From: Turbatrix aceti
Lineage: Eukaryota > Nematoda > Chromadorea > Rhabditida > Panagrolaimidae
Direction of reading: 5' to 3'
Length of the DNA stretch: 64,000 nt
NCBI GenBank assembly: GCA_963969345.1
Contig: OZ017770.1
Location: forward strand, 4,783,246-4,847,245
A program made the translations under genes and the position numbers. Every line of letters begins with the position of its first letter. Positions within the stretch are counted from its first letter, which is position 1. This document shows positions 3,212 to 33,200 of the stretch, in pieces. The notes under the pieces were generated by a model. The model was not told the DNA's origin. It saw only the letters and a list, made by a program, of their open reading frames with translations, and searched no databases.

Positions 3212-6200
3212 TTAAAATTTACATGGATTGTAGTAAGACTGAGTTCGCAACCGTGTGGTAGTAGGTTGCTGATAACCCGATGTGTAACCCATGCATGGTT
3301 GAGCTTCTGGTCGCAGCAGTGAATAGGAACGAGGGACGTTATCCATGGTAGATGGATCTGAAAAAAAAAGTTGTACTGCTGAATGAAATAACGGCTACAA
3401 CAAACCGGATAAGCTGACATTGACTACGCCCAGGCAAATGTTATCATTGTACCTATCGTAATCCCAAACCGTGAACTCCAGGTAATGATCCCGTCTATCG
3501 TGATAATTAAGGTAATATTCCACTGTTTGGTGCCAATTTGGATTCGCTGTGTTTGCAATGTATTTTGTGCGGCGTTTGTTCGAAACTCTAAAAATCAAAA
3601 TGCATAAAACCGGTATCAAAGGCGATGTACAACCTTCGAGATGGCAACAAATAGATCTTGACAAACGGATTCGGAGGCACAATGTTGCCATTGTACTCTC
3701 TGCATCGCAGATTGCACGCACCAATCACTGTCACCAGCAAGATTCCGTTGCCTTGGTCGTATGAAAGCGCGATTTGGAGCGTTCCGAGGCTCTCAATCGC
3801 ATCTTTTCTCTGCAGTTTTTTGAATCGTTCGTCAATTTGCCTTTACCCCTCAACACTTACGTAGCCCGTTCGTTGGCCGTTTGTCGGCCGCGCTGACCTC
3901 AGATTGAGCGGGAAAGCGTAATCATTTGGTCGATGCGCGGGCACTGGTGGCGCGCTTTCTTGCAGCCACGGATTTCTTTCGGTTTTCTCTGAAAGTTTTA
4001 TCGATTATTGCCAGTTTTCGTTATCTTTTTGTTACTCACGATTTAATCGCATGTTTCTTACGCCTTCTGACACATTGTCATAAACGTTTTCGGCTCTCAT
4101 AAATCCGGCTTCTTGTTCGGGATTGCTTTTTATGATAACCTCGATTTCTCCTTTGCTTCCAGCCACGATGCGTTCTACCTCTTCGAAGGTTTTTCCGTTG
4201 AGCAAAATGCCATTCCATTCTAGAACCTGGTCTCCTTCTTGCACTTCGCTCAGCGTTTCGAATCCTTTTCCACGGTTTACAGCTGTCACGAATGCCCCTA
4301 GGTCTCTGTTGGGAAGTTTTTTACCACCCGTGATTCTGATTCCCAGGTCTAAAAAATATTTCGTGTTTATATATTTTTTGACTAATGAGTCTCACCATTG
4401 TAAACATTGTGGTCCTTGTACCGACGAGTCAGCAAGATCGTTTTGATTCGCCGGTTCGGGAACATTCTTGGCTTTTCGTAATCGTCTCTGAGGAGTTCGT
4501 TTATCTCGCGTTCAATGTTTGTCATGGAGCGACCACGAGTTGTTGCCTGCAAGAAAATGCGTGAACATGAAACCCAAAAGATACTGAATCTTACCATTGA
4601 GCTTTTAAATTTATTGCTGGGGTATCTCCCCAAACTGGCGGTGGTGTACAACTGGCGGTTTTGATCGAGTTCTAAATGATGAATATTAATTGGGGCAAAC
4701 AAAATAAGGCAGAAAAGTTCAACCAGCTCCCAATGTTGTTTGGTTAGCCCACTGGCCGATGGACCACGATAACTCAAGGCATTACTCATTTGGTTGGTTG
4801 CCAAAAATATAGCGGGGTCTGTGGTATAAAAATGACGTTAAGTAATCTTTGGAGGCATTAAAAAGTATTTTTCGACTGTCATGATGCGTGATTTGTGTGC
4901 AGAAAATGAATTGGTGTATTGAGAGTGTTCAAGTGAGTGAATGGTTACTTTTTAATCTCGCATTGTTTGCATTTTGCTGTTGAGCCCCATGGCTATGCTA
5001 TCTTTAGACTCGTACGACTGTCACAAAAAATATTGAATGGCTCTACGCTTTGGTTCTAGCGACGTCCTATAGGAGTAATTAACATTTTTTTAAATGGATG
5101 ACATAATGTTCGAAAACCAACTGCTATTCTTAAAAACACAATAATATCTGTGTCACTGTGCCAACAGAATCACGCAGATGTTTATTTTGTTGCCAAAACG
5201 ATGCTTCGTGTTTTTGCTACAACTTCCTTGGCTCGAAAATAGTTGGGCGGCAGCGGGCATCATATTTCCCGTTTTTAAAGCATTGCCGTCATCAGAAATT
5301 GCGACCAGTATTTTCACTTTCCTTTTGCAACACACTTGGCACAACAAAACACCAAAACAAGAAAAAAAGGTATTGTTATAAAAAAAATATTTATTTATAG
5401 CTTGAGGATAAGAACATTAAATCCTGTCTATAAAGCACATGTTAACAACGAGGTAACAAGGAGAGAGGGAAAAAAAGAGAGCCTCGAGTGCCAACGAATG
5501 CCAAGAGTTATCGTGTCAATCTCATCGCCCATTAATAAATGTGTCATTATTAGTGTATGGGCCATAGGGGTTCACCGTACCCGAGTAATTTGTGTTTCCG
5601 AAATTGCTGTAAAGAGGTCTTTGCCGTCGACCGTACGTCTGATACATCCGACTGAGATCGTCTTCGTAGGGATACTTGGTGTCATAGATGGACGGATTGA
5701 CCTGTCGATACTGTTGTTGCTGTTGCTGTAGTTGCTGTTGTTGTTGCTGCTGCTGCTGCAGCAACTGTTGCTGTTGTTGTTGCATGAAAAGGCTCTGTTG
5801 GAGCTGAGGAGGCCTGCTTTGGTAATCGTTGAATGTGGCGTTGTAGCCGTTGTTCCAGGGACTAGGACGATACCCGCTTTGGGTTATTGGGGCCCCACTT
5901 GGAAGTGCAACGTTTGTGCAGGGTATGGCTTGTTGCACGTTTTGATTGACAAAATCTTGCAAATTGTCGAGTTGTCGCAAACTTTGTGCTCGGTTGTGGA
6001 GGTAGTTTCCGTACTCCCCGACTGGCTGCCGTGGCTGCATGCCGTAGTTTTGTTCCCTCCGAGAATACACCTGATTTTGAGGATGCATGTATGACGGCAT
6101 CAGATTGGGCGGATCGTAAACCGAGGGCACTGGAGGCGGAACGGGATTCAGAATTGTCGATTGATACGACGGTTGGTAGGAGGGCATTTGAACTCCGTAA

Positions 6201-12200: not shown

Positions 12201-15200
12201 GGTGACATAGGATCGTCCATCTGAATTTCAAAATTCAGATCATTGGCTTTGTTGAACATGGCGATGAGATGATTTCGCTCTTCTGGGGTGAAGTTTTCCA
12301 GTTCTAGGCCTTCTGGTATACCGCGGTTAACATTTGGGGATACTGGAGGTTGCTGGCTCGACAATTGTTGATACTGTTGGTTGCTGGTTGGTTGAGACGG
12401 CTCGTCATTCCAGCTCTCAGCTATTTGGTCTTGCCCGGTGGCGCGGGAATCATCTGCGGCGGCTTCACTATCATCAGAAAACACCGTCGTCCACATTCTG
12501 CCCGACTTATGTTCCCATTTTTCTGGCATCTAAAAAACGGGGGATAAAAAAATTGAAATTTAGATAAAAATTTGTTATAAAAACAAGTTAAAAATGCGTA
12601 CCTTGTACTCTTGCTTTGGCTGCATCCAGATATCATCGTCGAGCTCGACCGCATCGACTTGGGTTGGGCTAGAGCCTTCAATCACGCGAATGTTCTCGGC
12701 TTCTTGTTCATTCATCGAAGTCATCGGTTGCTGATTTTCGGTAGGCTCAAATGCTGCCGGTTGGTTCCAATTTTGCCGGTTGGGGGGCTCAAATGATGCC
12801 GGTTGGACGCTTTTTGCTTGTTCCTCTTTTGGTTCTTCGACGATGGGAGGGAGATATTCTTCCTGCCTGATCTCAGGTTCTTCGTCGATTTCAAATGACT
12901 CAGGAAGCATTGCAGCTGGAAATTCTTCGAAAATCGGAGGCGATGGCAATTCATTAGATGTCTTGAAGTCAGCATCGGGATCATAAGCCGAAGATTCAGT
13001 CGTTATGTAACCGCTGTCGGAAGGCTTAATTGGGCTCGAGTGCTTTGCAGAAATTTGAGAAGAAGCTGTGGAGGGTGCGATGCTTGGAGCCGGTGATATT
13101 GGCTGACTTGGCTGGCTGTCAATCAAAGGCTGTTGAGGCTCTTCTTCTAAAATAGATACTGGATTATTTTGTATGTTTGTAATACTCATTGCTCAAGCAA
13201 TATGCTTTGTGTTTCAACGAGTCACCAAAATCCATTGGCCTGATAACAACGAAAAGCCTCATGGGAACGAGTTCCCATCAGTTACCCGCTTAGTAGAGGC
13301 AGAACCCCAATGTGCAACTTTTTAGAGGCGTAATAAGGACACCCCTCTTTAGCCGACTTATGCAAAAACCCAGCGGCTAGGCGCATGCATTCCGGAAATA
13401 CGTACTCATCGACTGAAGAGTTTGTGGCTTAGGCGGCATGTTAACAGGAGTAGCTGGAGTCGGCACTGGCGGATGCGTTGTTGGAGAAGCACCTTGCATT
13501 TCTGCACAGCGCATAACGCTCAGAATTTGTTCTTGCTCCGCTGCGGACAGATGAGACAAACCCAGCTCTTCAATTGTCGGACCCGCCGATGACGGCATTG
13601 GCACCGATGCGGGCGTTGGTGCTGATGCAGGCGGCGGCACCGATGCGGGCATTGGCGACGGTGTAGAATCCTTCAGGCTGGGCACCGATTGTATAGAAGT
13701 AGTCGGCAATACATTGGGCCTGAAAAGCACTCAACTAATTAGACAAAAAGGAGCCTGGTTGGCTGGGGCTTGCCGCCTGCAAACAAAATAAGGTAACGCT
13801 TACGTCGTCGACGTTTTTGGTTGAGACACGGGCAATGTCACGCGCTGCGACTTAGGTGGAACTGGCGGTCCAATTTCAGCGGCATCAATTTCTGCACATG
13901 CCATGACTGCCATAATTTTGTCCCGTTCTTCCTGTGACAAATTCTCTAAGCCAGGTGGAAGTTGTGTTGACTCTGTTACCAAAGAAGGCAATACTGCAGA
14001 TTGAGAGCGTGAAGGCGGATTTGGAGCTTGCTAAAAACCCAAAAGTTGACATACACAAACGAAGAGAAAAAACTTGTCTTGCATATGAACAAAATAGTAC
14101 AGTTACATTCGACAATGCTTTTATAAAAACCTAAACAACACTCACCATAGATTTTCCAATCTGAGTCAAATCTCCCGTGGATGCAGCTTGAGCTGCCTGG
14201 GCCGCCTTGGCACCTATCTGTTCACCGGCTTGCTTCGCATTTTGGAGAGCATTATTGGCAAACTTGGTTAACCCGCCGAACCCACCGAATCCGCTTTTTC
14301 CTTTCGATCCAAACATTGCGAAACGAGATGTGTTCACAGGGCTTGTCGTGGCAGTACTGGAAGGCGATTGAGCAACTGGGGTATTACATGCTTTGTCGGT
14401 ATCATTGTTCTGGATATGCGAAAAATTGGCGCTTGAATATGAAGGCGTAGGCTCGGAAAGAGATGTTATGGGAGAGCCGGCGCCTCGTTCCTTCTTCTCC
14501 TCGTCCACGCAGTATTCTTCTTCGGCTGGCGCGATTTGTGGCTGCCAGTGTGGTTCTTGCGACGACAAAGAAGAAGACGGCGGCAACAAACGTGGCGGCG
14601 GTGTCTTTACTTCAGCACTCTGCACGGCTCCGGTGGCAGTATGCAATGCGCGGTCTGCTTCAACTGCAGCAACCGCATCGATTTTTTTCTCTACTTGCCC
14701 AAATGTAGTAGCTGAGTCGGCAATTGGTAAGCCAGCGGCGGCAGACATGCTGGACTCCTCCTCTGGCAGCATGGCAAAAGCGGCGAATGTTGGTTTTTGC
14801 TGTTGCATGACAAAAGAAGTCTGCTTTTCGTAATGTTTACTTTTTTCGCCAAAAATGCCTGAAACAATTAGCCGATGAATTTTTGTTTGCTTATTGTGCT
14901 GATAATTGCCGACAAATTACCGGAAGTTTTACAAAAAAAGAAACAAAAGAAAATAATTACCATAATCGTTATCGACTTCGTCGAGACTGCGGTTCAACTC
15001 AGATAGTTGGTCTTTGTAGAACTGAAATGCCTGAACACGTTCGACTGCTGTTACTTCATCGATAGGTGAAGTGCGTGGACTGAATTCGTTTTCAGTTAGC
15101 TCAGAAACAGAGGTTTGCAACGAGTCACGATGATCGTCAAGTGAAACAGCCGAGTCTTGGCTGCCGTCTCTGTCGAAGGAGGATGACACAAATTTAGATT

Positions 15201-18200
15201 CCATTGTATCCGTTGGTTTGACGTCGGTTTTTTCTTCAATTTGTGCCAAAAATTTGGGACTTTCCATCTCCGTGGGAACTTTCTCGGACGTATTAAATGC
15301 AGCTTGTAGGTCATCGATTGGTTGTTTAGGTAGAACGACAGTGTCGACTTTGGTTTTGAGCTGCTTTATTGTCGAAGTTGCTTTCCTGAGTGCTCCAAAC
15401 CCGAATGCTGTCAACTCCGACGTTTGGCTTAAGAAGGGGTTTGATTGTTGATTCGCGGTATTCAAAGTCGTGTCCGGCAACAGTGGCATATCAATAATTC
15501 CAGCGGCTCTATTTATTTGATTTATGTGTTCCAGTTCCTCTTCTGTGAGACCGACAGTTTGATGAGACGTGTGCTCAACTGAAACCGCTTTCTTTGACTC
15601 AGTTTCATTTGCCATTGCTTCATGATAAGCAGAACTTCTGGGCTCTGAAAGCTTGTCAGAAGTTGCGGCTGTCTTAGAACCGTGATCGAATTCAATATTC
15701 TGCGACGTGCTTTGATGGGCATTAAAAAGCATAGCATCTGCATCAGCCATTTCTGCAATTGCTTGAATATGTTCAAGTTCTTCAGCTGTCAAATGTGCAT
15801 CAAATGACGTTTCCGGCGGGCTACGTTTCTGTTCGACAGAAATGTTATTGTCCGAATACTTCGGGGGAAGTTGAGGTTCAAGAGTTTCGGATTTTGCGTA
15901 ATCCGCAATCTCAGCAGTTTCGGATTTGTCAATTAACTCTGGCTTTTGTGGCAAGGATGATATCATGCTGTCGGCTTCAGCCATCTCTGCAATCCGCTGA
16001 ATGTGTGCGAATTCTTCTGCCGTTAGGTGATCCGGATTTTCTTCCTGTTTCGCAACTTCTACCTGCTTTGGTGGTTCAGTTATGAGTTTTTGTGTTTTGG
16101 AAATGGCCTCATCCTTCTTTGCGATTACTGTAGACATCGTATCCGATAGCTTTTTCGTAAAGCCGGCAGTATTGAACAACGTTGGTTGTTTTGTTTCCGG
16201 TTTTTCCTCCTTCTTTTGCAAAACAATTGAATCGAGTGTCATTCCTTCATCGGCAGCCATTTGATTTATCAACTCAATATGGCGTCGTTCTTCTTTAGTT
16301 AAACCGTAATCGATTGATTCTTGCTTAACAGCGTTGGGAGTTAAAATAACCGAAAGAGAGTCAGACGTGTTCATTGCAACTTGGGCCGATAATTCGGTTT
16401 CCCTTGATGCCATTTCAGTTACACGCCGGATGTGCTCAAGCTCTTCTGCGGACAATTCGTTGCTTGTGAGAGTTTCAATATTAGGAACAAGTTCTTCAGT
16501 AATCGATCTTATTGAACTGGAAGACGTAGAGCTCATTCGTGGACTGTATGAAATTTCAACTGGTGTTTCCTTTCTTGAAAGCGGCGAGGATTTTTGACTT
16601 GATGCTGACAACTTTCTGCGTTCGTTTGCAGTCTCGACGACATCGGTAACCTTCTGAGAAACAGAGTTTGCAAAATGTTTGCCGAAGCTCAGGCCACGAC
16701 TAAAGACAGTTGACAAGGGCTGACCCTTAGACGGCTTGTTTGTTCCCTCTTCTTGTGCGGCAGCCGCATTTACTCTTGCGATGTGGTCCAGCTCTTCTTG
16801 AGTGAACGCTGCTTGAGAACTGCTTGTTTTACGACTTTCAGTCACCTGCCTAATTCCATCCATGGCGGACGCAAACATATCTTTAGCTTCCATAATTGTT
16901 GATCCTGCTTCGGATAAAAGCGTTTTTGGCATGCTTTGAGGCACCAATGGCTGAGACAAATTGGTCTCTTCGTTTTCGTGCACCATGTAATTTGAAAGGT
17001 GCTGTTCTGCAGGAAGTGATTCATTGCTTAGCTTCAAACTGCCTGTTGACGATGCCAATTGAAGATTTTCACCACATGATAGATTAGCATTCTTGTTCAA
17101 GTCATCACTGAAAACGCTAAGAGCGTCTGGGGAAAGCGGTGAAGGCAGATGCGCCATGACAGGTGCCGACAGACGCCGTGAAGAATGAGTGCCGGATGGA
17201 GAAGCAAATGGTTTTGACGATTGCATTCTGCCAAACAACAGCGACGGTGATAAGGAATTTCTTCTGGCATTTCCAAGACTCATTTTCGAAGGCTCGTTAA
17301 ATGCTGCAAATTCGGGTAAATTGTCCATTTCTTCGGGTGTCAGGTCACTGGAAGAACGAGGGCGTTCACTCGAAATTTCGCTTTGGGAATCAATGCGTTC
17401 CAAAGTTCGTCGCGGAAACATGTTGAATTCCATCGTCATTCTTTCGATATCAGATTCGGAGTTTAGAGGAGACTGAATTGAAACTTCGGGAATAGGATAT
17501 GACAGGTACTCCCCTCGCTCATCGGATTTAACGAAGGTAAGGTGTGCAGGTGGTTTCCTGTCCTCCGGTGCGACTTTAATAACGTACGGCGCTTGCCGTT
17601 GTTCGGCTTTAGAAATAACGTCTTGAATGTGTCTGCGTTCTTGTTCGTCAACATTGTCAAGTTCAGACAAAGTGTGCATTGCCGATGAGCTTCTGTAATC
17701 AAACACATGGTTGAACATACAAAACAAAAAACAACAACAACAAACCTTCTGGATTGTTGCGGAGTAGCTTGGGTTCGGTTAGCAGAGGCCAAGACTTTTA
17801 GAATGTGCTCTTTTTCAGCCTCAGAAAGTCCGGCAAACGCACTGCTGGGAAGCTTTTGTAATGGTGAATCACTAGGTTTTTCTGGTGACGACCGGTAAAC
17901 AAGATCCATGATGTCCCCTCCCATCGTTGTGGCCGGTCTAATTTCTGTTGACGACCTTCGAGAATCATGATGAGCTCCCGGTGTGCTTCGAGCTGCTTGA
18001 ATAATGGCCATTGCGGACTTCGGTCGATCTGCTGAACTGCGACGCCGGAAGTACCCCATCAATGAACTTGCAAATGATTCAGGCTCTTCGTGCAAAGGAT
18101 GTACTTCGTATTCGAGCTCTTCCCTTTCCAGTTTAGGAGCTCTAAAAAAGTATGCATGTAAGCAATTAGGAAAAAAATTAGCAAAACTCACTCTTCTCCG

Positions 18201-21200
18201 TTTTCGGAGGATTCATCGTCGGGATAAAATAAATTGGAGTCGTCGTCAAAGTAGCGTGCTCGAGGATTGTTAAGCATTCGAATTTTGGCCACAAGGTCAA
18301 CAGCTGCATTTTCAGCAATGGTTTCTGTTAATCTTTGTGCAAAAAAGTTTAATTTGACCATAAAGTCGATGTTGCACAGTTCTTCGCTGTTCGTAATCCA
18401 ACATCGTGCTTCGCACATCGAGTAAGCATTTCGGTGTCGTTCTTCATTACGCCGAGGAGGTGGTATGAGTGGCGCGTCAGCCTTGTTTGACACTCTGTCA
18501 ACCAGTGGCATTGTAACATCGCTCGACGTGGTGGGGGAAACGCATTCGGACTGAGAAACACGCAAAGATTTGTCGGTGTACATTACTCGAACGTTGTTAC
18601 GACTTTTCTTTGAAGCCGAAAAAGCATTTTGGACGGAATCATAATCACAATAAGAGATGGATAGGGAGGACCGCAAAGAACGCGGCATAGCTCGTGCGAA
18701 ATTGTCCATGCAAGAAACAGTGGTCATAACAACTGAATCCGACTGTCGACGACCCGCAGATTTGGAGGACAAATCGTAAATTGACAGATTTGCTCTAATT
18801 TCTGACGATGAGCGTTTGAACTGATCAAACATGGAAGAAAATGTATTATCAGGCACATTTTTTTCATGGACAAATTTCGATGGAACCTCATGGCTCATTT
18901 GATGGCTGCTTTGGGAGCCGTCATTGAGTAGTGCGTCGGGCATGCCGAAAATTAACGAATTGCCTGCAGCATACTCAGCAGCATTCTTATTAAAAGATGC
19001 GTCGACAAAAAAATTACGTAACACTAGCATATGCTGACGGTGGACATCGGATATAACTTCGTCGTAAGTGAAACCAAAGTTAGGTTTTTCGTCTACACCC
19101 CAGTAATAAACATTGTCTCTGCAAGGCGCTTGTTCCATAGCAACAGAAAGAGGAACGTTAATTTCGTTGCATTTGCTGCTCACGTTCGTACCAGAGTAAT
19201 CAATGACATTTGTACCAGTAGTGGTAAACAAAATTCCTTTAGGTTCCGAACCACGGAGAACGCCACCAGCAGAAGTATGGCTCAATCCAGATTTCAAACC
19301 TGTCATTTCCGGTGAGTATTCTTGATGTTCATTTTTGTAAGCGCCAGAATTCGTCTTCAAATTTTTGATTAATTGAGCTTCATTTTGAGTAAATGGCGTT
19401 TCGGAATGCTGACCAGACACTTCATAATGTTGCTCGAAGCTGGACTGCTCCGCGAGCCGCTTGATGTATTCGATGTGCGCGAGTTCGTCTTCTGTCAACG
19501 ACACCTGTTCGGCTAGTTGAGGTACCGGAGGGACTTCCGGTCGTGGAGGCGGACCGGATTCTTCTTTGATCGTTTCCTCGGGTTCCAGAAGTGGGCTGTT
19601 ACGTTCGTATGGCAGCGGTTGTTCGAACGACGCCTCGAATGACGAACCAGGCTCGGCATCTGCTCCGGACGTGGCATCTGAGTGTTCAGAAAGGTCGGCA
19701 TCTTCGACGACGGGCTTCGGCGGTTCCGGTGCAGTGAAAGAATACTGCGACACCGGTGCACGCTCGAAGCTGGACTGCTCCGCGAGCCGCTTGATGTATT
19801 CGATGTGCGCGAGTTCGTCTTCTGTCAACGACACCTGTTCGGCTAGATGAGGCACCGGAGGGACTTCCGGTCGTGGAGGGATTCCGGATTCTTCTTTGAT
19901 CGTTTCCTCGGGTTCCAGAAGTGGGCTGTTACGTTCGTATGGCAGCGGTTGTTCGAACGACGCCTCGAATGACGAACCAGGCTCGGCATCTGCTCCGGAC
20001 GTGGCATCTGAGTGTTCAGAAAGGTCGGCATCTTCGACGACGGGCTTTGGCGGTTCCGGTGCAGTGAAAGAATACTGCGACACCGGTGCGCGCTCGAAGC
20101 TGGACTGCTCCGCGAGCCGCTTGATGTATTCGATGTGCGCGAGTTCGTCTTCTGTCAACGACACCTGTTCGGCAAGATGAGGTACCGGAGGCGCTTCTGG
20201 TCGTGGAGGCGGACCGGATTCTTCTTTGATCGTTTCCTCGGGTTCCAGAAGTGGGCTGTTACGTTCGTATGGCAGCGGTTGTTCGAACGACGCCTCGAAT
20301 GACGAACCAGGCTCGGCATCTGCTCCGGACGTGGCATCTGAGTGTTCAGAAAGGTCGGCATCTTCGACGACGGGCTTCGGCGGTTCCGGTGCAGTGAAAG
20401 AATACTGCGACACCGGTGCGCGCTCGAAGCTGGACTGCTCCGCGAGCCGCTTGATGTATTCGATGTGCGCGAGTTCGTCTTCTGTCAACGACACCTGTTC
20501 GGCAAGATGAGGTACCGGAGGCGCTTCTGGTCGTGGAGGGATTCCGGATTCTTCTTTGATCGTTTCCTCGGGTTCCAGAAGTGGGCTGTTACGTTCGTAT
20601 GGCAGCGGTTGTTCGAATGACGCCTCGAAAGACGAACCAGGCTCGGCATCTGCTCCGGACGTGGCATCTGAGTGTTCAGAAAGGTCGGCATCTTCGACGA
20701 CGGGCTTCGGCGGTTCCGGTGCAGTGAAAGAATACTGCGACACCGGTGCACGCTCGAAGCTGGACTGCTCCGCGAGCCGCTTGATGTATTCGATGTGCGC
20801 GAGTTCGTCTTCTGTCAACGACACCTGTTCGGCAAGATGAGGTACCGGAGGCGCTTCTGGTCGTGGAGGGATTCCGGATTCTTCTTTGATCGTTTCCTCG
20901 GGTTCCAGAAGTGGGCTGTTACGTTCGTATGGCAGCGGTTGTTCGAATGACGCCTCGAAAGACGAACCAGGCTCGGCATCTGCCCCGGACGTGGCATCTG
21001 AGTGTTCAGAAAGGTCGGCATCTTCGACGACGGGCTTCGGCGGCTCCGGTGCAGTGAAAGAATACTGCGACACCGGTGCGCGCTCGAAGCTGGACTGCTC
21101 CGCGAGCCGCTTGATGTATTCGATGTGCGCGAGTTCGTCTTCTGTCAACGACACCTGTTCGGCAAGATGAGGTACCGGAGGCGCTTCTGGTCGTGGAGGC

Positions 21201-24200
21201 GGACCGGATTCTTCTTTGATCGTTTCCTCGGGTTCCAGAAGTGGGCTGTTACGTTCGTATGGCAGCGGTTGTTCGAACGACGCCTCGAATGACGAACCAG
21301 GCTCGGCATCTGCTCCGGACGTGGCATCTGAGTGTTCAGAAAGGTCGGCATCTTCGACGACGGGCTTCGGCGGTTCCGGTGCAGTGAAAGAATACTGCGA
21401 CACCGGTGCGCGCTCGAAGCTGGACTGCTCCGCGAGCCGCTTGATGTATTCGATGTGCGCGAGTTCGTCTTCTGTCAACGACACCTGTTCGGCAAGATGA
21501 GGTACCGGAGGCGCTTCTGGTCGTGGAGGGATTCCGGATTCTTCTTTGATCGTTTCCTCGGGTTCCAGAAGTGGGCTGTTACGTTCGTATGGCAGCGGTT
21601 GTTCGAACGACGCCTCGAATGACGAACCAGGCTCGGCATCTGCTCCGGACGTGGCATCTGAGTGTTCAGAAAGGTCGGCATCTTCGACGACGGGCTTCGG
21701 CGGCTCCGGTGCAGTGAAAGAATACTGCGACACCGGTGCGCGCTCGAAGCTGGACTGCTCCGCGAGCCGCTTGATGTATTCGATGTGCGCGAGTTCGTCT
21801 TCTGTCAACGACACCTGTTCGGCAAGATGAGGTACCGGAGGCGCTTCTGGTCGTGGAGGCGGACCGGATTCTTCTTTGATCGTTTCCTCGGGTTCCAGAA
21901 GTGGGCTGTTACGTTCGTATGGCAGCGGTTGTTCGAACGACGCCTCGAATGACGAACCAGGCTCGGCATCTGCTCCGGACGTGGCATCTGAGTGTTCAGA
22001 AAGGTCGGCATCTTCGACGACGGGCTTTGGCGGTTCCGGTGCAGTGAAAGAATACTGCGACACCGGTGCGCGCTCGAAGCTGGACTGCTCCGCGAGCCGC
22101 TTGATGTATTCGATGTGCGCGAGTTCGTCTTCTGTCAACGACACCTGTTCGGCAAGATGAGGTACCGGAGGCGCTTCTGGTCGTGGAGGCGGACCGGATT
22201 CTTCTTTGATCGTTTCCTCGGGTTCCAGAAGTGGGCTGTTACGTTCGTATGGCAGCGGTTGTTCGAACGACGCCTCGAATGACGAACCAGGCTCGGCATC
22301 TGCTCCGGACGTGGCATCTGAGTGTTCAGAAAGGTCGGCATCTTCGACGACGGGCTTCGGCGGTTCCGGTGCAGTGAAAGAATACTGCGACACCGGTGCG
22401 CGCTCGAAGCTGGACTGCTCCGCGAGCCGCTTGATGTATTCGATGTGCGCGAGTTCGTCTTCTGTCAACGACACCTGTTCGGCAAGATGAGGTACCGGAG
22501 GCGCTTCTGGTCGTGGAGGCGGACCGGATTCTTCTTTGATCGTTTCCTCGGGTTCCAGAAGTGGGCTGTTACGTTCGTATGGCAGCGGTTGTTCGAACGA
22601 CGCCTCGAATGACGAACCAGGCTCGGCATCTGCTCCGGACGTGGCATCTGAGTGTTCAGAAAGGTCGGCATCTTCGACGACGGGCTTCGGCGGTTCCGGT
22701 GCAGTGAAAGAATACTGCGACACCGGTGCGCGCTCGAAGCTGGACTGCTCCGCGAGCCGCTTGATGTATTCGATGTGCGCGAGTTCGTCTTCTGTCAACG
22801 ACACCTGTTCGGCAAGATGAGGTACCGGAGGCGCTTCTGGTCGTGGAGGGATTCCGGATTCTTCTTTGATCGTTTCCTCGGGTTCCAGAAGTGGGCTGTT
22901 ACGTTCGTATGGCAGCGGTTGTTCGAACGACGCCTCGAATGACGAACCAGGCTCGGCATCTGCTCCGGACGTGGCATCTGAGTGTTCAGAAAGGTCGGCA
23001 TCTTCGACGACGGGCTTCGGCGGCTCCGGTGCAGTGAAAGAATACTGCGACACCGGTGCGCGCTCGAAGCTGGACTGCTCCGCGAGCCGCTTGATGTATT
23101 CGATGTGCGCGAGTTCGTCTTCTGTCAACGACACCTGTTCGGCAAGATGAGGTACCGGAGGCGCTTCTGGTCGTGGAGGCGGACCGGATTCTTCTTTGAT
23201 CGTTTCCTCGGGTTCCAGAAGTGGGCTGTTACGTTCGTATGGCAGCGGTTGTTCGAACGACGCCTCGAATGACGAACCAGGCTCGGCATCTGCTCCGGAC
23301 GTGGCATCTGAGTGTTCAGAAAGGTCGGCATCTTCGACGACGGGCTTTGGCGGTTCCGGTGCAGTGAAAGAATACTGCGACACCGGTGCGCGCTCGAAGC
23401 TGGACTGCTCCGCGAGCCGCTTGATGTATTCGATGTGCGCGAGTTCGTCTTCTGTCAACGACACCTGTTCGGCAAGATGAGGTACCGGAGGCGCTTCTGG
23501 TCGTGGAGGCGGACCGGATTCTTCTTTGATCGTTTCCTCGGGTTCCAGAAGTGGGCTGTTACGTTCGTATGGCAGCGGTTGTTCGAACGACGCCTCGAAT
23601 GACGAACCAGGCTCGGCATCTGCTCCGGACGTGGCATCTGAGTGTTCAGAAAGGTCGGCATCTTCGACGACGGGCTTCGGCGGTTCCGGTGCAGTGAAAG
23701 AATACTGCGACACCGGTGCGCGCTCGAAGCTGGACTGCTCCGCGAGCCGCTTGATGTATTCGATGTGCGCGAGTTCGTCTTCTGTCAACGACACCTGTTC
23801 GGCAAGATGAGGTACCGGAGGCGCTTCTGGTCGTGGAGGGATTCCGGATTCTTCTTTGATCGTTTCCTCGGGTTCCAGAAGTGGGCTGTTACGTTCGTAT
23901 GGCAGCGGTTGTTCGAATGACGCCTCGAAAGACGAACCAGGCTCGGCATCTGCTCCGGACGTGGCATCTGAGTGTTCAGAAAGGTCGGCATCTTCGACGA
24001 CGGGCTTCGGCGGTTCCGGTGCAGTGAAAGAATACTGCGACACCGGTGCACGCTCGAAGCTGGACTGCTCCGCGAGCCGCTTGATGTATTCGATGTGCGC
24101 GAGTTCGTCTTCTGTCAACGACACCTGTTCGGCAAGATGAGGTACCGGAGGCGCTTCTGGTCGTGGAGGGATTCCGGATTCTTCTTTGATCGTTTCCTCG

Positions 24201-27200
24201 GGTTCCAGAAGTGGGCTGTTACGTTCGTATGGCAGCGGTTGTTCGAATGACGCCTCGAAAGACGAACCAGGCTCGGCATCTGCCCCGGACGTGGCATCTG
24301 AGTGTTCAGAAAGGTCGGCATCTTCGACGACGGGCTTTGGCGGTTCCGGTGCAGTGAAAGAATACTGCGACACCGGTGCGCGCTCGAAGCTGGACTGCTC
24401 CGCGAGCCGCTTGATGTATTCGATGTGCGCGAGTTCGTCTTCTGTCAACGACACCTGTTCGGCAAGATGAGGTACCGGAGGCGCTTCTGGTCGTGGAGGG
24501 ATTCCGGATTCTTCTTTGATCGTTTCCTCGGGTTCCAGAAGTGGGCTGTTACGTTCGTATGGCAGCGGTTGTTCGAATGACGCCTCGAAAGACGAACCAG
24601 GCTCGGCATCTGCTCCGGACGTGGCATCTGAGTGTTCAGAAAGGTCGGCATCTTCGGCGACGGGCTTCGGCGGCTCCGGTGCAGTGAAAGAATACTGCGA
24701 CACCGGTGCGCGCTCGAAGCTGGACTGCTCCGCGAGCCGCTTGATGTATTCGATGTGCGCGAGTTCGTCTTCTGTCAACGACACCTGTTCGGCAAGATGA
24801 GGTACCGGAGGCGCTTCTGGTCGTGGAGGGATTCCGGATTCTTCTTTGATCGTTTCCTCGGGTTCCAGAAGTGGGCTGTTACGTTCGTATGGCAGCGGTT
24901 GTTCGAATGACGCCTCGAAAGACGAACCAGGCTCGGCATCTGCTCCGGACGTGGCATCTGAGTGTTCAGAAAGGTCGGCATCTTCGACGACGGGCTTCGG
25001 CGGTTCCGGTGCAGTGAAAGAATACTGCGACACCGGTGCACGCTCGAAGCTGGACTGCTCCGCGAGCCGCTTGATGTATTCGATGTGCGCGAGTTCGTCT
25101 TCTGTCAACGACACCTGTTCGGCAAGATGAGGTACCGGAGGCGCTTGTGGTCGTGGAGGGATTCCGGATTCTTCTTTGATCGTTTCCTCGGGTTCCAGAA
25201 GTGGGCTGTTACGTTCGTATGGCAGCGGTTGTTCGAATGACGCCTCGAAAGACGAACCAGGCTCGGCATCTGCCCCGGACGTGGCATCTGAGTGTTCAGA
25301 AAGGTCGGCATCTTCGACGACGGGCTTTGGCGGTTCCGGTGCAGTGAAAGAATACTGCGACACCGGTGCGCGCTCGAAGCTGGACTGCTCCGCGAGCCGC
25401 TTGATGTATTCGATGTGCGCGAGTTCGTCTTCTGTCAACGACACCTGTTCGGCTAGATGAGGCACCGGAGGTACCGGAGGCGCTTCCGGTCGTGGAGGCG
25501 GGCCGGATTCTTCTTTGATCGTTTCTTCGGGTTCCAGAAGTGGGCTGTTACGTTCGTATGGCAGCGGTTGTTCGAACGACGCCTCGAATGACGAACCAGG
25601 CTCGGCATCTGCTCCGGACGTGGCATCTGAGTGTTCAGAAAGGTCGGCATCTTCGACGACGGGCTTCGGCGGTTCCGGTGCAGTGAAAGAATACTGCGAC
25701 ACCGGTGCACGCTCGAAGCTGGACTGCTCCGCGAGCCGCTTGATGTATTCGATGTGCGCGAGTTCGTCTTCTGTCAACGACACCTGTTCGGCTAGTTGAG
25801 GTACCGGAGGGACTTCCGGTCGTGGAGGCGGACCGGATTCTTCTTTGATCGTTTCCTCGGGTTCCAGAAGTGGGCTGTTACGTTCGTATGGCAGCGGTTG
25901 TTCGAACGACGCCTCGAATGACGAACCAGGCTCGGCATCTGCTCCGGACGTGGCATCTGAGTGTTCAGAAAGGTCGGCATCTTCGACGACGGGCTTCGGC
26001 GGTTCCGGTGCAGTGAAAGAATACTGCGACACCGGTGCGCGCTCGAAGCTGGACTGCTCCGCGAGCCGCTTGATGTATTCGATGTGCGCGAGTTCGTCTT
26101 CTGTCAACGACACCTGTTCGGCTAGTTGAGGTACCGGAGGGACTTCCGGTCGTGGAGGCGGACCGGATTCTTCTTTGATCGTTTCCTCGGGTTCCAGAAG
26201 TGGGCTGTTACGTTCGTATGGCAGCGGTTGTTCGAACGACGCCTCGAATGACGAACCAGGCTCGGCATCTGCCCCGGACGTGGCATCTGAGTGTTCAGAA
26301 AGGTCGGCATCTTCGACGACGGGCTTCGGCGGCTCCGGTGCAGTGAAAGAATACTGCGACACCGGTGCGCGCTCGAAGCTGGACTGCTCCGCGAGCCGCT
26401 TGATGTATTCGATGTGCGCGAGTTCGTCTTCTGTCAACGACACCTGTTCGGCTAGTTGAGGCACCGGAGGCGCTTCTGGTCGTGGAGGCGGACCGGATTC
26501 TTCTTTGATCGTTTCCTCGGGTTCCAGAAGTGGGCTGTTACGTTCGTATGGCAGCGGTTGTTCGAACGACGCCTCGAATGACGAACCAGGCTCGGCATCT
26601 GCTCCGGACGTGGCATCTGAGTGTTCAGAAAAGTCGGCATCTTCGACGACGGGCTTCGGCGGTTCCGGTGCAGTGAAAGAATACTGCGACACCGGTGCGC
26701 GCTCGAAGCTGGACTGCTCCGCGAGCCGCTTGATGTATTCGATGTGCGCGAGTTCGTCTTCTGTCAACGACACCTGTTCGGCTAGATGAGGCACCGGAGG
26801 TACCGGAGGCGCTTCCGGTCGTGGAGGCGGGCCGGATTCTTCTTTGATCGTTTCTTCGGGTTCCAGAAGTGGGCTGTTACGTTCGTATGGCAGCGGTTGT
26901 TCGAACGACGCCTCGAATGACGAACCAGGCTCGGCATCTGCTCCGGACGTGGCATCTGAGTGTTCAGAAAGGTCGGCATCTTCGACGACGGGCTTCGGCG
27001 GCTCCGGTGCAGTGAAAGAATACTGCGACACCGGTGCGCGCTCGAAGCTGGACTGCTCCGCGAGCCGCTTGATGTATTCGATGTGCGCGAGTTCGTCTTC
27101 TGTCAACGACACCTGTTCGGCTAGATGAGGCACCGGAGGCGCTTCTGGTCGTGGAGGCGGGCCGGATTCTTCTTTGATCGTTTCCTCGGGTTCCAGAAGG

Positions 27201-30200: not shown

Positions 30201-33200
30201 GGACCGGATTCTTCTTTGATCGTTTCTTCGGGTTCCAGAAGTGGGCTGTTACGTTCGTATGGCAGCGGTTGTTCGAATGACGCCTCGAATGACGAACCAG
30301 GCTCGGCATCTGCCCCGGACGTGGCATCTGAGTGTTCAGAAAGGTCGGCATCTTCGACGACGGGCTTCGGCGGCTCCGGTGCAGTGAAAGAATACTGCGA
30401 CACCGGTGCGCGCTCGAAGCTGGACTGCTCCGCGAGCCGCTTGATGTATTCGATGTGCGCGAGTTCGTCTTCTGTCAACGACACCTGTTCGGCTAGATGA
30501 GGCACCGGAGGTACCGGAGGCGCTTCCGGTCGTGGAGGCGGGCCGGATTCTTCTTTGATCGTTTCTTCGGGTTCCAGAAGTGGGCTGTTACGTTCGTATG
30601 GCAGCGGTTGTTCGAACGACGCCTCGAATGACGAACCAGGCTCGGCATCTGCCCCGGACGTGGCATCTGAGTGTTCAGAAAGGTCGGCATCTTCGACGAC
30701 GGGCTTCGGCGGCTCCGGTGCAGTGAAAGAATACTGCGACACCGGTGCGCGCTCGAAGCTGGACTGCTCCGCGAGCCGCTTGATGTATTCGATGTGCGCG
30801 AGTTCGTCTTCTGTCAACGACACCTGTTCGGCTAGATGAGGCACCGGAGGTACCGGAGGCGCTTCCGGTCGTGGAGGCGGACCGGATTCTTCTTTGATCG
30901 TTTCTTCGGGTTCCAGAAGTGGGCTGTTACGTTCGTATGGCAGCGGTTGTTCGAATGACGCCTCGAATGACGAACCAGGCTCGGCATCTGCCCCGGACGT
31001 GGCATCTGAGTGTTCAGAAAGGTCGGCATCTTCGACGACGGGCTTCGGCGGCTCCGGTGCAGTGAAAGAATACTGCGACACCGGTGCGCGCTCGAAGCTG
31101 GACTGCTCCGCGAGCCGCTTGATGTATTCGATGTGCGCGAGTTCGTCTTCTGTCAACGACACCTGTTCGGCTAGATGAGGCACCGGAGGTACCGGAGGCG
31201 CTTCCGGTCGTGGAGGCGGACCGGATTCTTCTTTGATCGTTTCTTCGGGTTCCAGAAGTGGGCTGTTACGTTCGTATGGCAGCGGTTGTTCGAACGACGC
31301 CTCGAATGACGAACCAGGCTCGGCATCTGCTCCGGACGTGGCATCTGAGTGTTCAGAAAGGTCGGCATCTTCGACGACGGGCTTCGGCGGTTTCGGTGCA
31401 GTGAAAGAATACTGCGACACCGGTGCACGCTCGAAGCTGGACTGCTCCGCGAGCCGCTTGATGTATTCGATGTGCGCGAGTTCGTCTTCTGTCAACGACA
31501 CCTGTTCGGCTAGATGTGGCACCGGAGGTACCGGAGGCGCTTCCGGTCGTGGAGGCGGACCGGATTCTTCTTTGATCGTTTCTTCGGGTTCCAGAAGTGG
31601 GCTGTTACGTTCGTATGGCAGCGGTTGTTCGAACGACGCCTCGAATGACGAACCAGGCTCGGCATCTGCTCCGGACGTGGCATCTGAGTGTTCAGAAAGG
31701 TCGGCATCTTCGACGACGGGCTTCGGCGGTTTCGGTGCAGTGAAAGAATACTGCGACACCGGTGCACGCTCGAAGCTGGACTGCTCCGCGAGCCGCTTGA
31801 TGTATTCGATGTGCGCGAGTTCGTCTTCTGTCAACGACACCTGTTCGGCTAGTTGAGGTACCGGAGGGACTTCCGGTCGTGGAGGCGGACCGGATTCTTC
31901 TTTGATCGTTTCCTCGGGTTCCAGAAGTGGGCTGTTACGTTCGTATGGCAGCGGTTGTTCGAACGACGCCTCGAATGACGAACCAGGCTCGGCATCTGCT
32001 CCGGACGTGGCATCTGAGTGTTCAGAAAGGTCGGCATCTTCGACGACGGGCTTCGGCGGTTTCGGTGCAGTGAAAGAATACTGCGACACCGGTGCACGCT
32101 CGAAGCTGGACTGCTCCGCGAGCCGCTTGATGTATTCGATGTGCGCGAGTTCGTCTTCTGTCAACGACACCTGTTCGGCTAGTTGAGGTACCGGAGGGAC
32201 TTCCGGTCGTGGAGGCGGACCGGATTCTTCTTTGATCGTTTCTTCGGGTTCCAGAAGTGGGCTGTTACGTTCGTATGGCAGCGGTTGTTCGAATGACGCT
32301 TCGAAAGACGAACCAGGCTCGGCATCTGCTCCGGACGTGGCATCTGAGTGTTCAGAAAGGTCGGCATCTTCGACGACGGGCTTCGGCGGTTCCGGTGCAG
32401 TGAAAGAATACTGCGACACCGGTGCGCGCTCGAAGCTGGACTGCTCCGCGAGCCGCTTGATGTATTCGATGTGCGCGAGTTCGTCTTCTGTCAACGACAC
32501 CTGTTCGGCTAGATGAGGCACCGGCGGTACCGGAGGCGCTTCCGGTCGTGGAGGCGGACCGGATTCTTCTTTGATCGTTTCTTCGGGTTCCAGAAGTGGG
32601 CTGTTACGTTCGTATGGCAGCGGTTGTTCGAATGACGCCTCGAAAGACGAACCAGGCTCGGCATCTGCTCCGGACGTGGCATCTGAGTGTTCCGAAAATT
32701 CGATGTTTTCGGTGTTTGGTTTTGAAATTTCAGGATCGCATTCCATACTGAACTGTTTGGAAAATGAGTACTTTTTTCTGATGTAATTGCCACCGTTCTC
32801 TATGAATTGTTGATGTAGCAAACTATTGATAAAGTTCAAATGTTTTCTTTCGTTTTCGGACCATGTCGTTGCGGGAAATTTTTGAAGCATAGCGTTTTGG
32901 TCCGAAAAGTCAGATTCGTGCAGAAACATTTCGTTTTCATGGATACATATGAGATCCTGTTGCTCGAAAGAGTTTGTTTCGCTCCAGATTGTGTAGGGGT
33001 AGTCAGTTTCGTAGCTTGCTAAAATATTATTTATGTCAGTTTTTTTTTGATCCAATGAATGCATACCGTTTGTGTTTTCTAATAGGACTTCCGCTAATGC
33101 TTTTACATTGTCCATTGATTTAGACGTTGGAAAGTTGAAATATTGCATTTCGTATTCCTCAGTCTTTTCTATGACAACTGTTTGTCTCAACGCAGCCACA

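What the first reader, a model, noticed from the sequence alone, without database searches (positions are those of the whole stretch)
19434..32697. Each repeat carries a RIM/rabphilin-like Rab-binding helix
The core LTEDELAHIEYIKRLAE matches the spacing of the first Rab3-binding helix of rabphilin and RIM and of the SHD1 helix of synaptotagmin-like proteins (L-T-x-E/D-E-x3-I-x2-V/I-x3-A-E). If functional, one CLA-1 molecule could bind some 40-50 Rab GTPases and tether many synaptic vesicles, a proposed molecular basis for its known vesicle-clustering role. I know of no description of this array as a Rab-binding device.
Basis: inference. Interest (0 to 1): 0.88.

Follow-up and report, generated by a model that had tools for sequence, protein, structure and literature searches.

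The report
Helix array in nematode Clarinet protein
A giant nematode synapse protein carries 40 identical copies of a short helix that resembles part of known vesicle-GTPase-binding helices, but the copies lack a key contact residue, so the array looks more like a generic multivalent sticker than a row of Rab binders.

Summary
In detail: all 40 units of the array (19432-32697, minus strand) carry LTEDELAHIEYIKRLAE, identical even in DNA. The gene is a cla-1/Clarinet orthologue (PDZ and C2 exons downstream). The helix is not confined to the array: 11 diverged copies follow it, and six related nematode proteins carry 16-48 each. Flanks share 7-8% identity between species, the helix 42%. The helix family does resemble the first half of the RIM/rabphilin/Slp Rab-binding helix, but best in downstream helices (R1, type B, partly R2). 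R1 outscores the only non-Rab-effector PDB hit listed for a RabBD-helix profile. The array units match less well. The basic residue 21 that contacts Rab is present in 40 of 40 distinct RabBD helices, in 0 of 40 array units (Leu instead), and in 6 of 6 aligned R2 helices. The array helix is predicted to be 16 residues; a crystallised Slp2 helix construct has 28. No Arg32, no Trp for SHD2, no zinc finger. The "40-50 Rab GTPases" device is therefore unlikely as stated. Best reading: a stickers-and-spacers helix array, with the single conserved R1-R2 module as the better Rab-contact candidate. Nothing was tested biochemically.

The parts
19432..32697 (-). tandem array, 40 units of 110 or 113 aa, each with one type A helix LTEDELAHIEYIKRLAEQS and (39 complete units) an acidic, proline-rich linker
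18188..33550 (-). 5120-codon open frame holding the array (large exon of the cla-1L orthologue)
32438..32494 (-). first array helix (19 codons, positions 7-25)
19442..19498 (-). last array helix (19 codons)
17772..17828 (-). helix R1, LSEAEKEHILKVLASANRT: best RabBD-like helix of the gene under profile A5 (15.4 bits); counterparts in the six other nematode proteins
17596..17652 (-). helix R2, VDEQERRHIQDVISKAEQR: keeps Lys21-Ala22-Glu23; counterparts in five other nematode proteins; only 4.0 bits under profile A5
16750..16806 (-). type A helix FTQEELDHIARVNAAAAQE
16399..16455 (-). type A helix LSAEELEHIRRVTEMASRE
16246..16302 (-). type A helix LTKEERRHIELINQMAADE
15970..16026 (-). type A helix LTAEEFAHIQRIAEMAEAD
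15736..15792 (-). type A helix LTAEELEHIQAIAEMADAD
15493..15549 (-). type A helix LTEEELEHINQINRAAGII
13884..13940 (-). type B helix LSQEERDKIMAVMACAEID
13494..13550 (-). type B helix LSAAEQEQILSVMRCAEMQ
12236..12292 (-). type B helix FTPEERNHLIAMFNKANDL (Lys21)
4032..4391 (-). PDZ domain (PF00595, 29.7 bits, cut-off 23.2): identifies the gene as cla-1/RIM/Piccolo-type
3395..3724 (-). C2 domain (PF00168, 45.9 bits, cut-off 22)

Best explanation
The array is the repeat region of a Clarinet (CLA-1L) orthologue and works as a stickers-and-spacers polymer. Forty identical 16-19-residue helices are the stickers; disordered acidic, proline-rich linkers are the spacers. Each helix presents one conserved face (L7, E11, H14, I15, I18, L21, A22). 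Inferred: many weak contacts of that face, with neighbouring helices or with a presynaptic partner, add up to cluster vesicles around the active zone. The helix is a variant of the first half of a RabBD/SHD1-type helix, but the array copies have a hydrophobic residue in place of the basic Rab-contact residue 21 and are unlikely to be canonical Rab binders. The single-copy downstream module R1-R2, not the array, is the likelier Rab contact of this protein. Shown: copies, conservation, residue counts, resemblance, predicted helix. Inferred: partner, clustering mechanism, Rab contact of R1-R2.
For: 40 identical helices. The same helix occurs 153 times in six related nematode proteins. Between-species identity is 42.1% in the helix and 7.9% / 7.1% in the flanks (helices were collected with a helix profile, so the first figure is favoured). 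Helix spacing differs by species: 110/113 aa here; 100 or 104 aa in 16 of 47 gaps in C. japonica; 47-48 in 5 of 18 in Nippostrongylus; 23 in 15 of 28 in Globodera. AlphaFold2 on two units, single sequence, gives one helix per unit at residues 11-26 and 121-136, plus a short 2-6 helix (mean pLDDT 58; 80 and 64-65 in the two ten-residue blocks of each helix). Position 21 is M, L or I in 107 of 151 instances from other nematodes, so the lack of the basic residue is not peculiar to this species. R2 has invariant Lys21-Ala22-Glu23 in 6/6 aligned sequences. AlphaFold 3 work on the C. elegans repeat reports a central helix per unit and stacked helices in a ten-repeat model (PMC12402934, whole text read).
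Against: No partner is known from this work. Identity of all 40 copies can come from recent homogenisation rather than selection. For R1-R2: profiles of R1+R2 or R2 alone find no Rab effector in the PDB; the window's R2 scores only 4.0 bits under the RabBD profile and shares 5/19 with the genome's own rabphilin helix, within background; R1 is basic at 21 in only 3/7; both lack Arg32 and SHD2. The published model of the whole repeat region has low confidence, by its authors' account.
Confidence: 0.5

Rival explanations
1. One reading: each array helix binds a Rab (RAB-3 or RAB-27) as RabBD helix 1 does, so one molecule tethers tens of vesicles.
For: E11, I15, I18 and A22 are kept in 40/40; E11A/R32A abolishes Slp2-a binding to Rab27 (PMC12188314, passages). 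A 28-residue SHD1 helix fused to Rab27A packs as in the complex (PMC8864489, passages). The array unit scores 11.3 on a RabBD matrix, like the genome's own Slp-type helix at 10.5, and shares 8/19 with a nematode rabphilin helix (background maximum 7). CLA-1L colocalises with RAB-3 in NSM neurons (PMC5728718, passages).
Against: Basic residue 21 absent in 40/40; no Arg32, no Trp, no Cys in the unit; predicted helix only 16 residues; uS13 outranks rabphilin for the full CLA-1 profile (0.005 against 1.6); the unit shares 4/19 with the genome's own rabphilin helix and 5/19 with its RIM-like one, both within background; 3 of 43,675 background windows score as high on the matrix, so about 0.6 are expected by chance in a protein of roughly 8,500 residues.
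Confidence: 0.12
2. Homotypic helix contacts: the helices bundle with each other and drive condensation; no folded partner is needed.
For: AlphaFold 3 of ten C. elegans repeats shows stacking of adjacent helices, and CALVADOS shows transient compaction (PMC12402934, whole text). Residue 21 of the conserved face is mostly hydrophobic.
Against: Our two-unit model gives no confident packing (pTM 0.16, single sequence). Conservation of E11 and H14 is more than a bundle core asks for (inference).
Confidence: 0.28
3. The linkers do the work (proline-rich SH3 ligands, a dileucine-like ERNSPLLEPEE stretch for endocytic adaptors) and the helices only space them.
For: The 39 complete linkers hold a PPRPEAPPVP-like stretch; [quoted passage not shown] CLA-1L interacts genetically with EHS-1 and ITSN-1 (PMC12402934; PMC10101500, passages).
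Against: The 20 residues on either side of the helix are not conserved between species, while the helix is. The motif names are recalled and no motif scan was run.
Confidence: 0.1

Closest known systems
C. elegans Clarinet/CLA-1L repeat region (23 repeats of 94 aa; PMC12402934)
   Same: same protein type: giant long isoform with tandem units, one central helix per unit, acidic disordered flanks, PDZ and C2 at the C-terminus
   Different: here 40 units of 110/113 aa; the C. elegans sequence was not returned by the two searches that could have found it, so it was not aligned
RabBD / SHD1 helix 1 of rabphilin, RIM, Slp, melanophilin (Pfam FYVE_2, PF02318)
   Same: N-cap L-[ST]-x-x-E, I15, V/I18, in register over 19 columns; R1 and B13550 share 10/19 with the genome's own rabphilin helix
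   Different: array lacks basic residue 21, Arg32, the second half of the helix, SHD2 and zinc finger
Pfam DUF7443 (PF24227)
   Same: hits the exon 14929-17778 above its cut-off (34.7 bits against 27; best stretch on a helix); precomputed for the Necator, Aphelenchoides and Nippostrongylus proteins
   Different: a catalogued domain of unknown function; the array unit alone gives no hit, and a six-frame search of the genome with this family did not list the gene

Membership tests
RabBD / SHD1 (RIM, rabphilin, Slp, melanophilin) | N-cap L-[ST]-x-x-E with Glu11 | tested here: met
   40/40 array units, 10/10 other window helices in the count; R2 has Val-Asp at the cap
RabBD / SHD1 (RIM, rabphilin, Slp, melanophilin) | hydrophobic I15 and V/I/L/M18 | tested here: met
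   40/40 and 10/10
RabBD / SHD1 (RIM, rabphilin, Slp, melanophilin) | Arg/Lys21 matched to a contact with a conserved Rab Asp | tested here: not met
   array 0/40; RabBD set 25/25 and 40/40 distinct helices picked by pattern from the hits; other nematode CLA-1 helices 10/153, other window helices 1/10; R2 6/6; R1 3/7 (read off)
RabBD / SHD1 (RIM, rabphilin, Slp, melanophilin) | long helix to about residue 32 with Arg32 (rabphilin and Slp type) | tested here: not met
   array helix ends at position 24 in the model; basic 32 in 0/40 against 14/25 in RabBD
RabBD / SHD1 (RIM, rabphilin, Slp, melanophilin) | SHD2 with Trp-Phe, or zinc finger | tested here: not met
   array unit has 0 Trp and 0 Cys; Pfam FYVE_2 not hit by the unit or the five exon translations scanned with it
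RabBD / SHD1 (RIM, rabphilin, Slp, melanophilin) | GTP-dependent Rab binding | not testable with these tools
   no complex with a Rab could be modelled here and no assay was found in the papers seen
[quoted passage not shown]
   both over Pfam cut-offs
Clarinet/CLA-1 (long isoform) | N-terminal tandem repeats, one helix per unit, between disordered flanks | tested here: met
   (disorder only as low-confidence coil in the model)
Clarinet/CLA-1 (long isoform) | sequence relatives in other nematode CLA-1 proteins | tested here: met
   six proteins with E<=0.01; one is named Tag-80 by its source (a cla-1 synonym by recall), three have a precomputed C2, one is called sec16-like by a source; that all six are CLA-1 is inferred

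The most novel reading that the evidence does not exclude
CLA-1 arose by amplifying a RabBD-type helix. The single R1-R2 module is a cryptic zinc-finger-free Rab3/Rab27 contact, and the array is a many-fold copied, retooled version of the same helix that holds vesicles by multivalency, possibly through a Rab surface read with a hydrophobic instead of a basic residue 21.
Probability: 0.17. Interest if true: 0.85.

Novelty: new variant of a known kind. Interest (0 to 1): 0.5.

Why it matters
How giant active-zone proteins hold vesicle pools is open, and CLA-1L has been called the most enigmatic CLA-1 isoform because of its size and structure (PMC5728718, passages). Showing that one short helix is kept across nematodes while repeat length and linkers change turns a 13-kb repeat into a single testable peptide. 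The position-21 split separates helices that could touch a Rab (R2, perhaps R1) from those that probably do not (the array).

Tried and rejected
Single type B helix against the PDB: no Rab effector. Pfam scan of 36 single helices: DUF7443 in 7, FYVE_2 in 1 at E=0.15, among 16 weak families. CLA-1 profiles against the PDB gave mixed results. Type B A2: Slp2-Rab27A fusions at E=0.40, ranks 4-7. A6, 36 instances that I chose for diversity: rabphilin 0.02 and Slp2 0.45, behind uS13 at 0.015. All 120 distinct instances A7: uS13 0.005, rabphilin 1.6. R1+R2 A9 and R2 A8: no Rab effector. RabBD profile A5 against the PDB: one non-RabBD hit, 12.7 bits (the tool's filters may have dropped others, while my own run had filters off and a rebuilt profile). 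In CLA-1, R1 scores 15.4 and four helices reach 12.7 or more; the array is not among the 45 of 162 matches printed. Identity to the genome's own rabphilin helix: R1 and B13550 10/19, A16455 and B13940 7, the other seven 2-5. The N-capped natural control had only 7 members and is too small to use. Column-permuted hhalign controls destroy the amphipathic pattern, so they are a weak null. Own-genome search with single helices returned only the query itself or one more CLA-1 helix, because one or two candidates were scored: uninformative. The pattern for E-E-L/F-D/E-H-I occurs 6 times in the genome, 4 in this gene. The last protein search went to Rab effectors, and C. elegans CLA-1L was not returned, so whether the ATG-9 allele I5753N (PMC10101500) hits a helix stays open.
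Full report
What is there. The region is one tandem array at 19432-32697, minus strand, period 330 bp, 39.8 copies, inside a 5120-codon open frame at 18188-33550. It holds 40 copies of LTEDELAHIEYIKRLAEQSSFE at spacings of 110 aa (25) or 113 aa (14). The 66 nt are identical in all 40, while 12 of the next 61 codons vary among the 39 complete units (Fisher p=0.030). Downstream exons encode a PDZ domain (29.7 bits, cut-off 23.2) and a C2 domain (45.9 bits, cut-off 22), and six nematode proteins match the end of the large exon. The gene is therefore a cla-1/Clarinet long-isoform orthologue; that all six relatives are CLA-1 is inferred (one is named Tag-80, three have a C2 domain, one is called sec16-like by a source). 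The genome has 59.9 Mb in 28 contigs; the species was not identified, and no gene model or splicing was worked out.

The helix outside the array. A pattern scan and a profile find 10 further helices downstream in the same gene, and an eleventh (R2, 17652-17596) was read by eye from the conserved module. One more, at 17343, is broken by a proline and scores as background, as do two loose look-alikes just before and after the array. In the six other nematode proteins the profile finds 48, 16, 19, 22, 19 and 29 helices, 153 in all. Spacing differs: 100 or 104 aa in 16 of 47 gaps in C. japonica, 66 in 3 of 18 in Necator, 47-48 in 5 of 18 in Nippostrongylus, 23 in 15 of 28 in Globodera. These spacings are measured between helices, so repeats without the helix would not be seen. 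Between species the helix shares 42.1% identity, the 20 residues upstream 7.9% and downstream 7.1%, over 12,513 pairs. The helices were collected with a helix profile, which favours the first figure; the flanks were not.

Resemblance to Rab-binding helices. I collected RabBD helices from rabphilin, RIM, Slp and melanophilin relatives and from this genome: a rabphilin-like, a RIM/UNC-10-like and an Slp-like gene. Profile-profile alignment gives 19 columns in register, P 1.7e-10, 7.6e-11 for type B against non-nematode RabBD and 1.1e-8 for R2. The best of 60 column-permuted controls scored 15.3 against 35.0; this null is weak. With the RabBD profile A5, the one non-RabBD PDB sequence listed scores 12.7 bits (filters may have dropped others). 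In CLA-1, R1 of this window scores 15.4 and three more helices reach 12.7; the window's R2 scores 4.0, R2 of other species 4.6 to 12.6. The array unit is not among the 45 matches printed. On a simple matrix the array scores 11.3, reached by 3 of 43,675 windows from long open frames in 230 kb of this genome; R1, R2, the three type B helices and four of the six downstream type A helices are reached by none, the other two by 3 and 4. R1 and B13550 share 10/19 residues with the genome's own rabphilin helix, where 147,947 background windows reach 8 at most; the array shares 4 and R2 5, within background. Against one other nematode's rabphilin helix, array, R2, A15549 and B13550 share 8 and R1 10 (background maximum 7). 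The PDB searches with CLA-1 profiles are mixed and are listed in Tried and rejected.

The test that splits the helices. Numbering follows Slp2 (residues 5-32, PMC8864489, passages). E11A/R32A abolishes Slp2-a binding to Rab27 (PMC12188314, passages). The main helix of Slp2-a, melanophilin and rabphilin has a conserved Arg/Lys that matches one contacting a Rab Asp in Mical-Rab structures (PMC5026484, passages); by its following Asp in Slp2-a and melanophilin I take it to be residue 21. It is basic in 25/25 of set A5 and in 40/40 distinct helices picked by pattern from the Rab-effector hits. It is basic in 0/40 array units and 10/153 other nematode CLA-1 helices, where M, L or I dominate (107 of 151). 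Five of those ten belong to R2, one per protein in P0001-P0005; with this window, R2 has Lys21-Ala22-Glu23 in 6/6. In Globodera no R2 was placed with confidence. R1 is basic at 21 in 3/7 (read off). With a preceding GDI[ML][ND]L[LV]RR-like motif, R1 and R2 form a conserved stretch of about 90 residues in P0001-P0005 and, across two open frames, in this window. On a helical wheel worked by hand (100 degrees per residue) position 21 lies on the same face as L7, E11, H14, I15, I18 and A22, so the array keeps the face but changes its chemistry.

Structure. AlphaFold2 on two units, single sequence, gives one 16-residue helix per unit (11-26, 121-136) and a short 2-6 helix, pTM 0.16, mean pLDDT 58. 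The helix ends at position 24; Arg32, a Trp for SHD2 and Cys for a zinc finger are absent from the unit.

Literature. PMC12402934 (whole text) describes the C. elegans repeat as a central helix between disordered flanks and suggests interaction among helices or with presynaptic proteins; it names no Rab. In PMC5728718 (passages) the authors found no vertebrate similarity beyond PDZ and C2. A search for at least two of Clarinet, CLA-1, Rab-binding, Rab3-binding, RabBD and DUF7443 gave 40 papers; none of the 15 listed holds any of the last four. So I found no earlier description of the Rab-like helix in the listings and passages seen; subscription papers are mostly not held. A missense allele, I5753N, lowers CLA-1L and disturbs ATG-9 sorting (PMC10101500, passages); I could not place it on the helices.

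Verdict. The array is better read as a multivalent helix array of unknown partner, and R1-R2 is the module to test with RAB-3 and RAB-27.

Noticed in passing
17596-17828 (minus): R1-R2: conserved two-helix module after the array, preceded by a GDI[ML][ND]L[LV]RR-like motif, one per protein, seen in this window and five other nematode proteins.
   Followed up: partly
19432-32697: The helix codons are identical in 40/40 units including synonymous sites, while 12 of the next 61 codons vary (Fisher p=0.030): gene conversion or constraint on the DNA.
   Followed up: partly
P0001, P0003, P0005, P0006: Helix spacings of other nematode CLA-1 proteins differ widely (100/104, 66, 47-48, 23 aa), which suggests repeated independent expansion.
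   Followed up: partly
array units, e.g. 19499-19828: Proline-rich PPRPEAPPVP-like and dileucine-like ERNSPLLEPEE stretches in the 39 complete linkers, with small variants: possible SH3 or adaptor ligands (motif names recalled).
   Followed up: no
C. elegans CLA-1L I5753 (PMC10101500); C. japonica P0001 3300-4000: The ATG-9 missense allele lies 3169 residues from the C-terminus, near the distance of the C. japonica helix cluster; 22 of 50 Ile residues there lie in helices.
   Followed up: partly
31179-31856 (plus): An antisense open frame of 225 codons runs through the array; it appears only to mirror the repeat.
   Followed up: no
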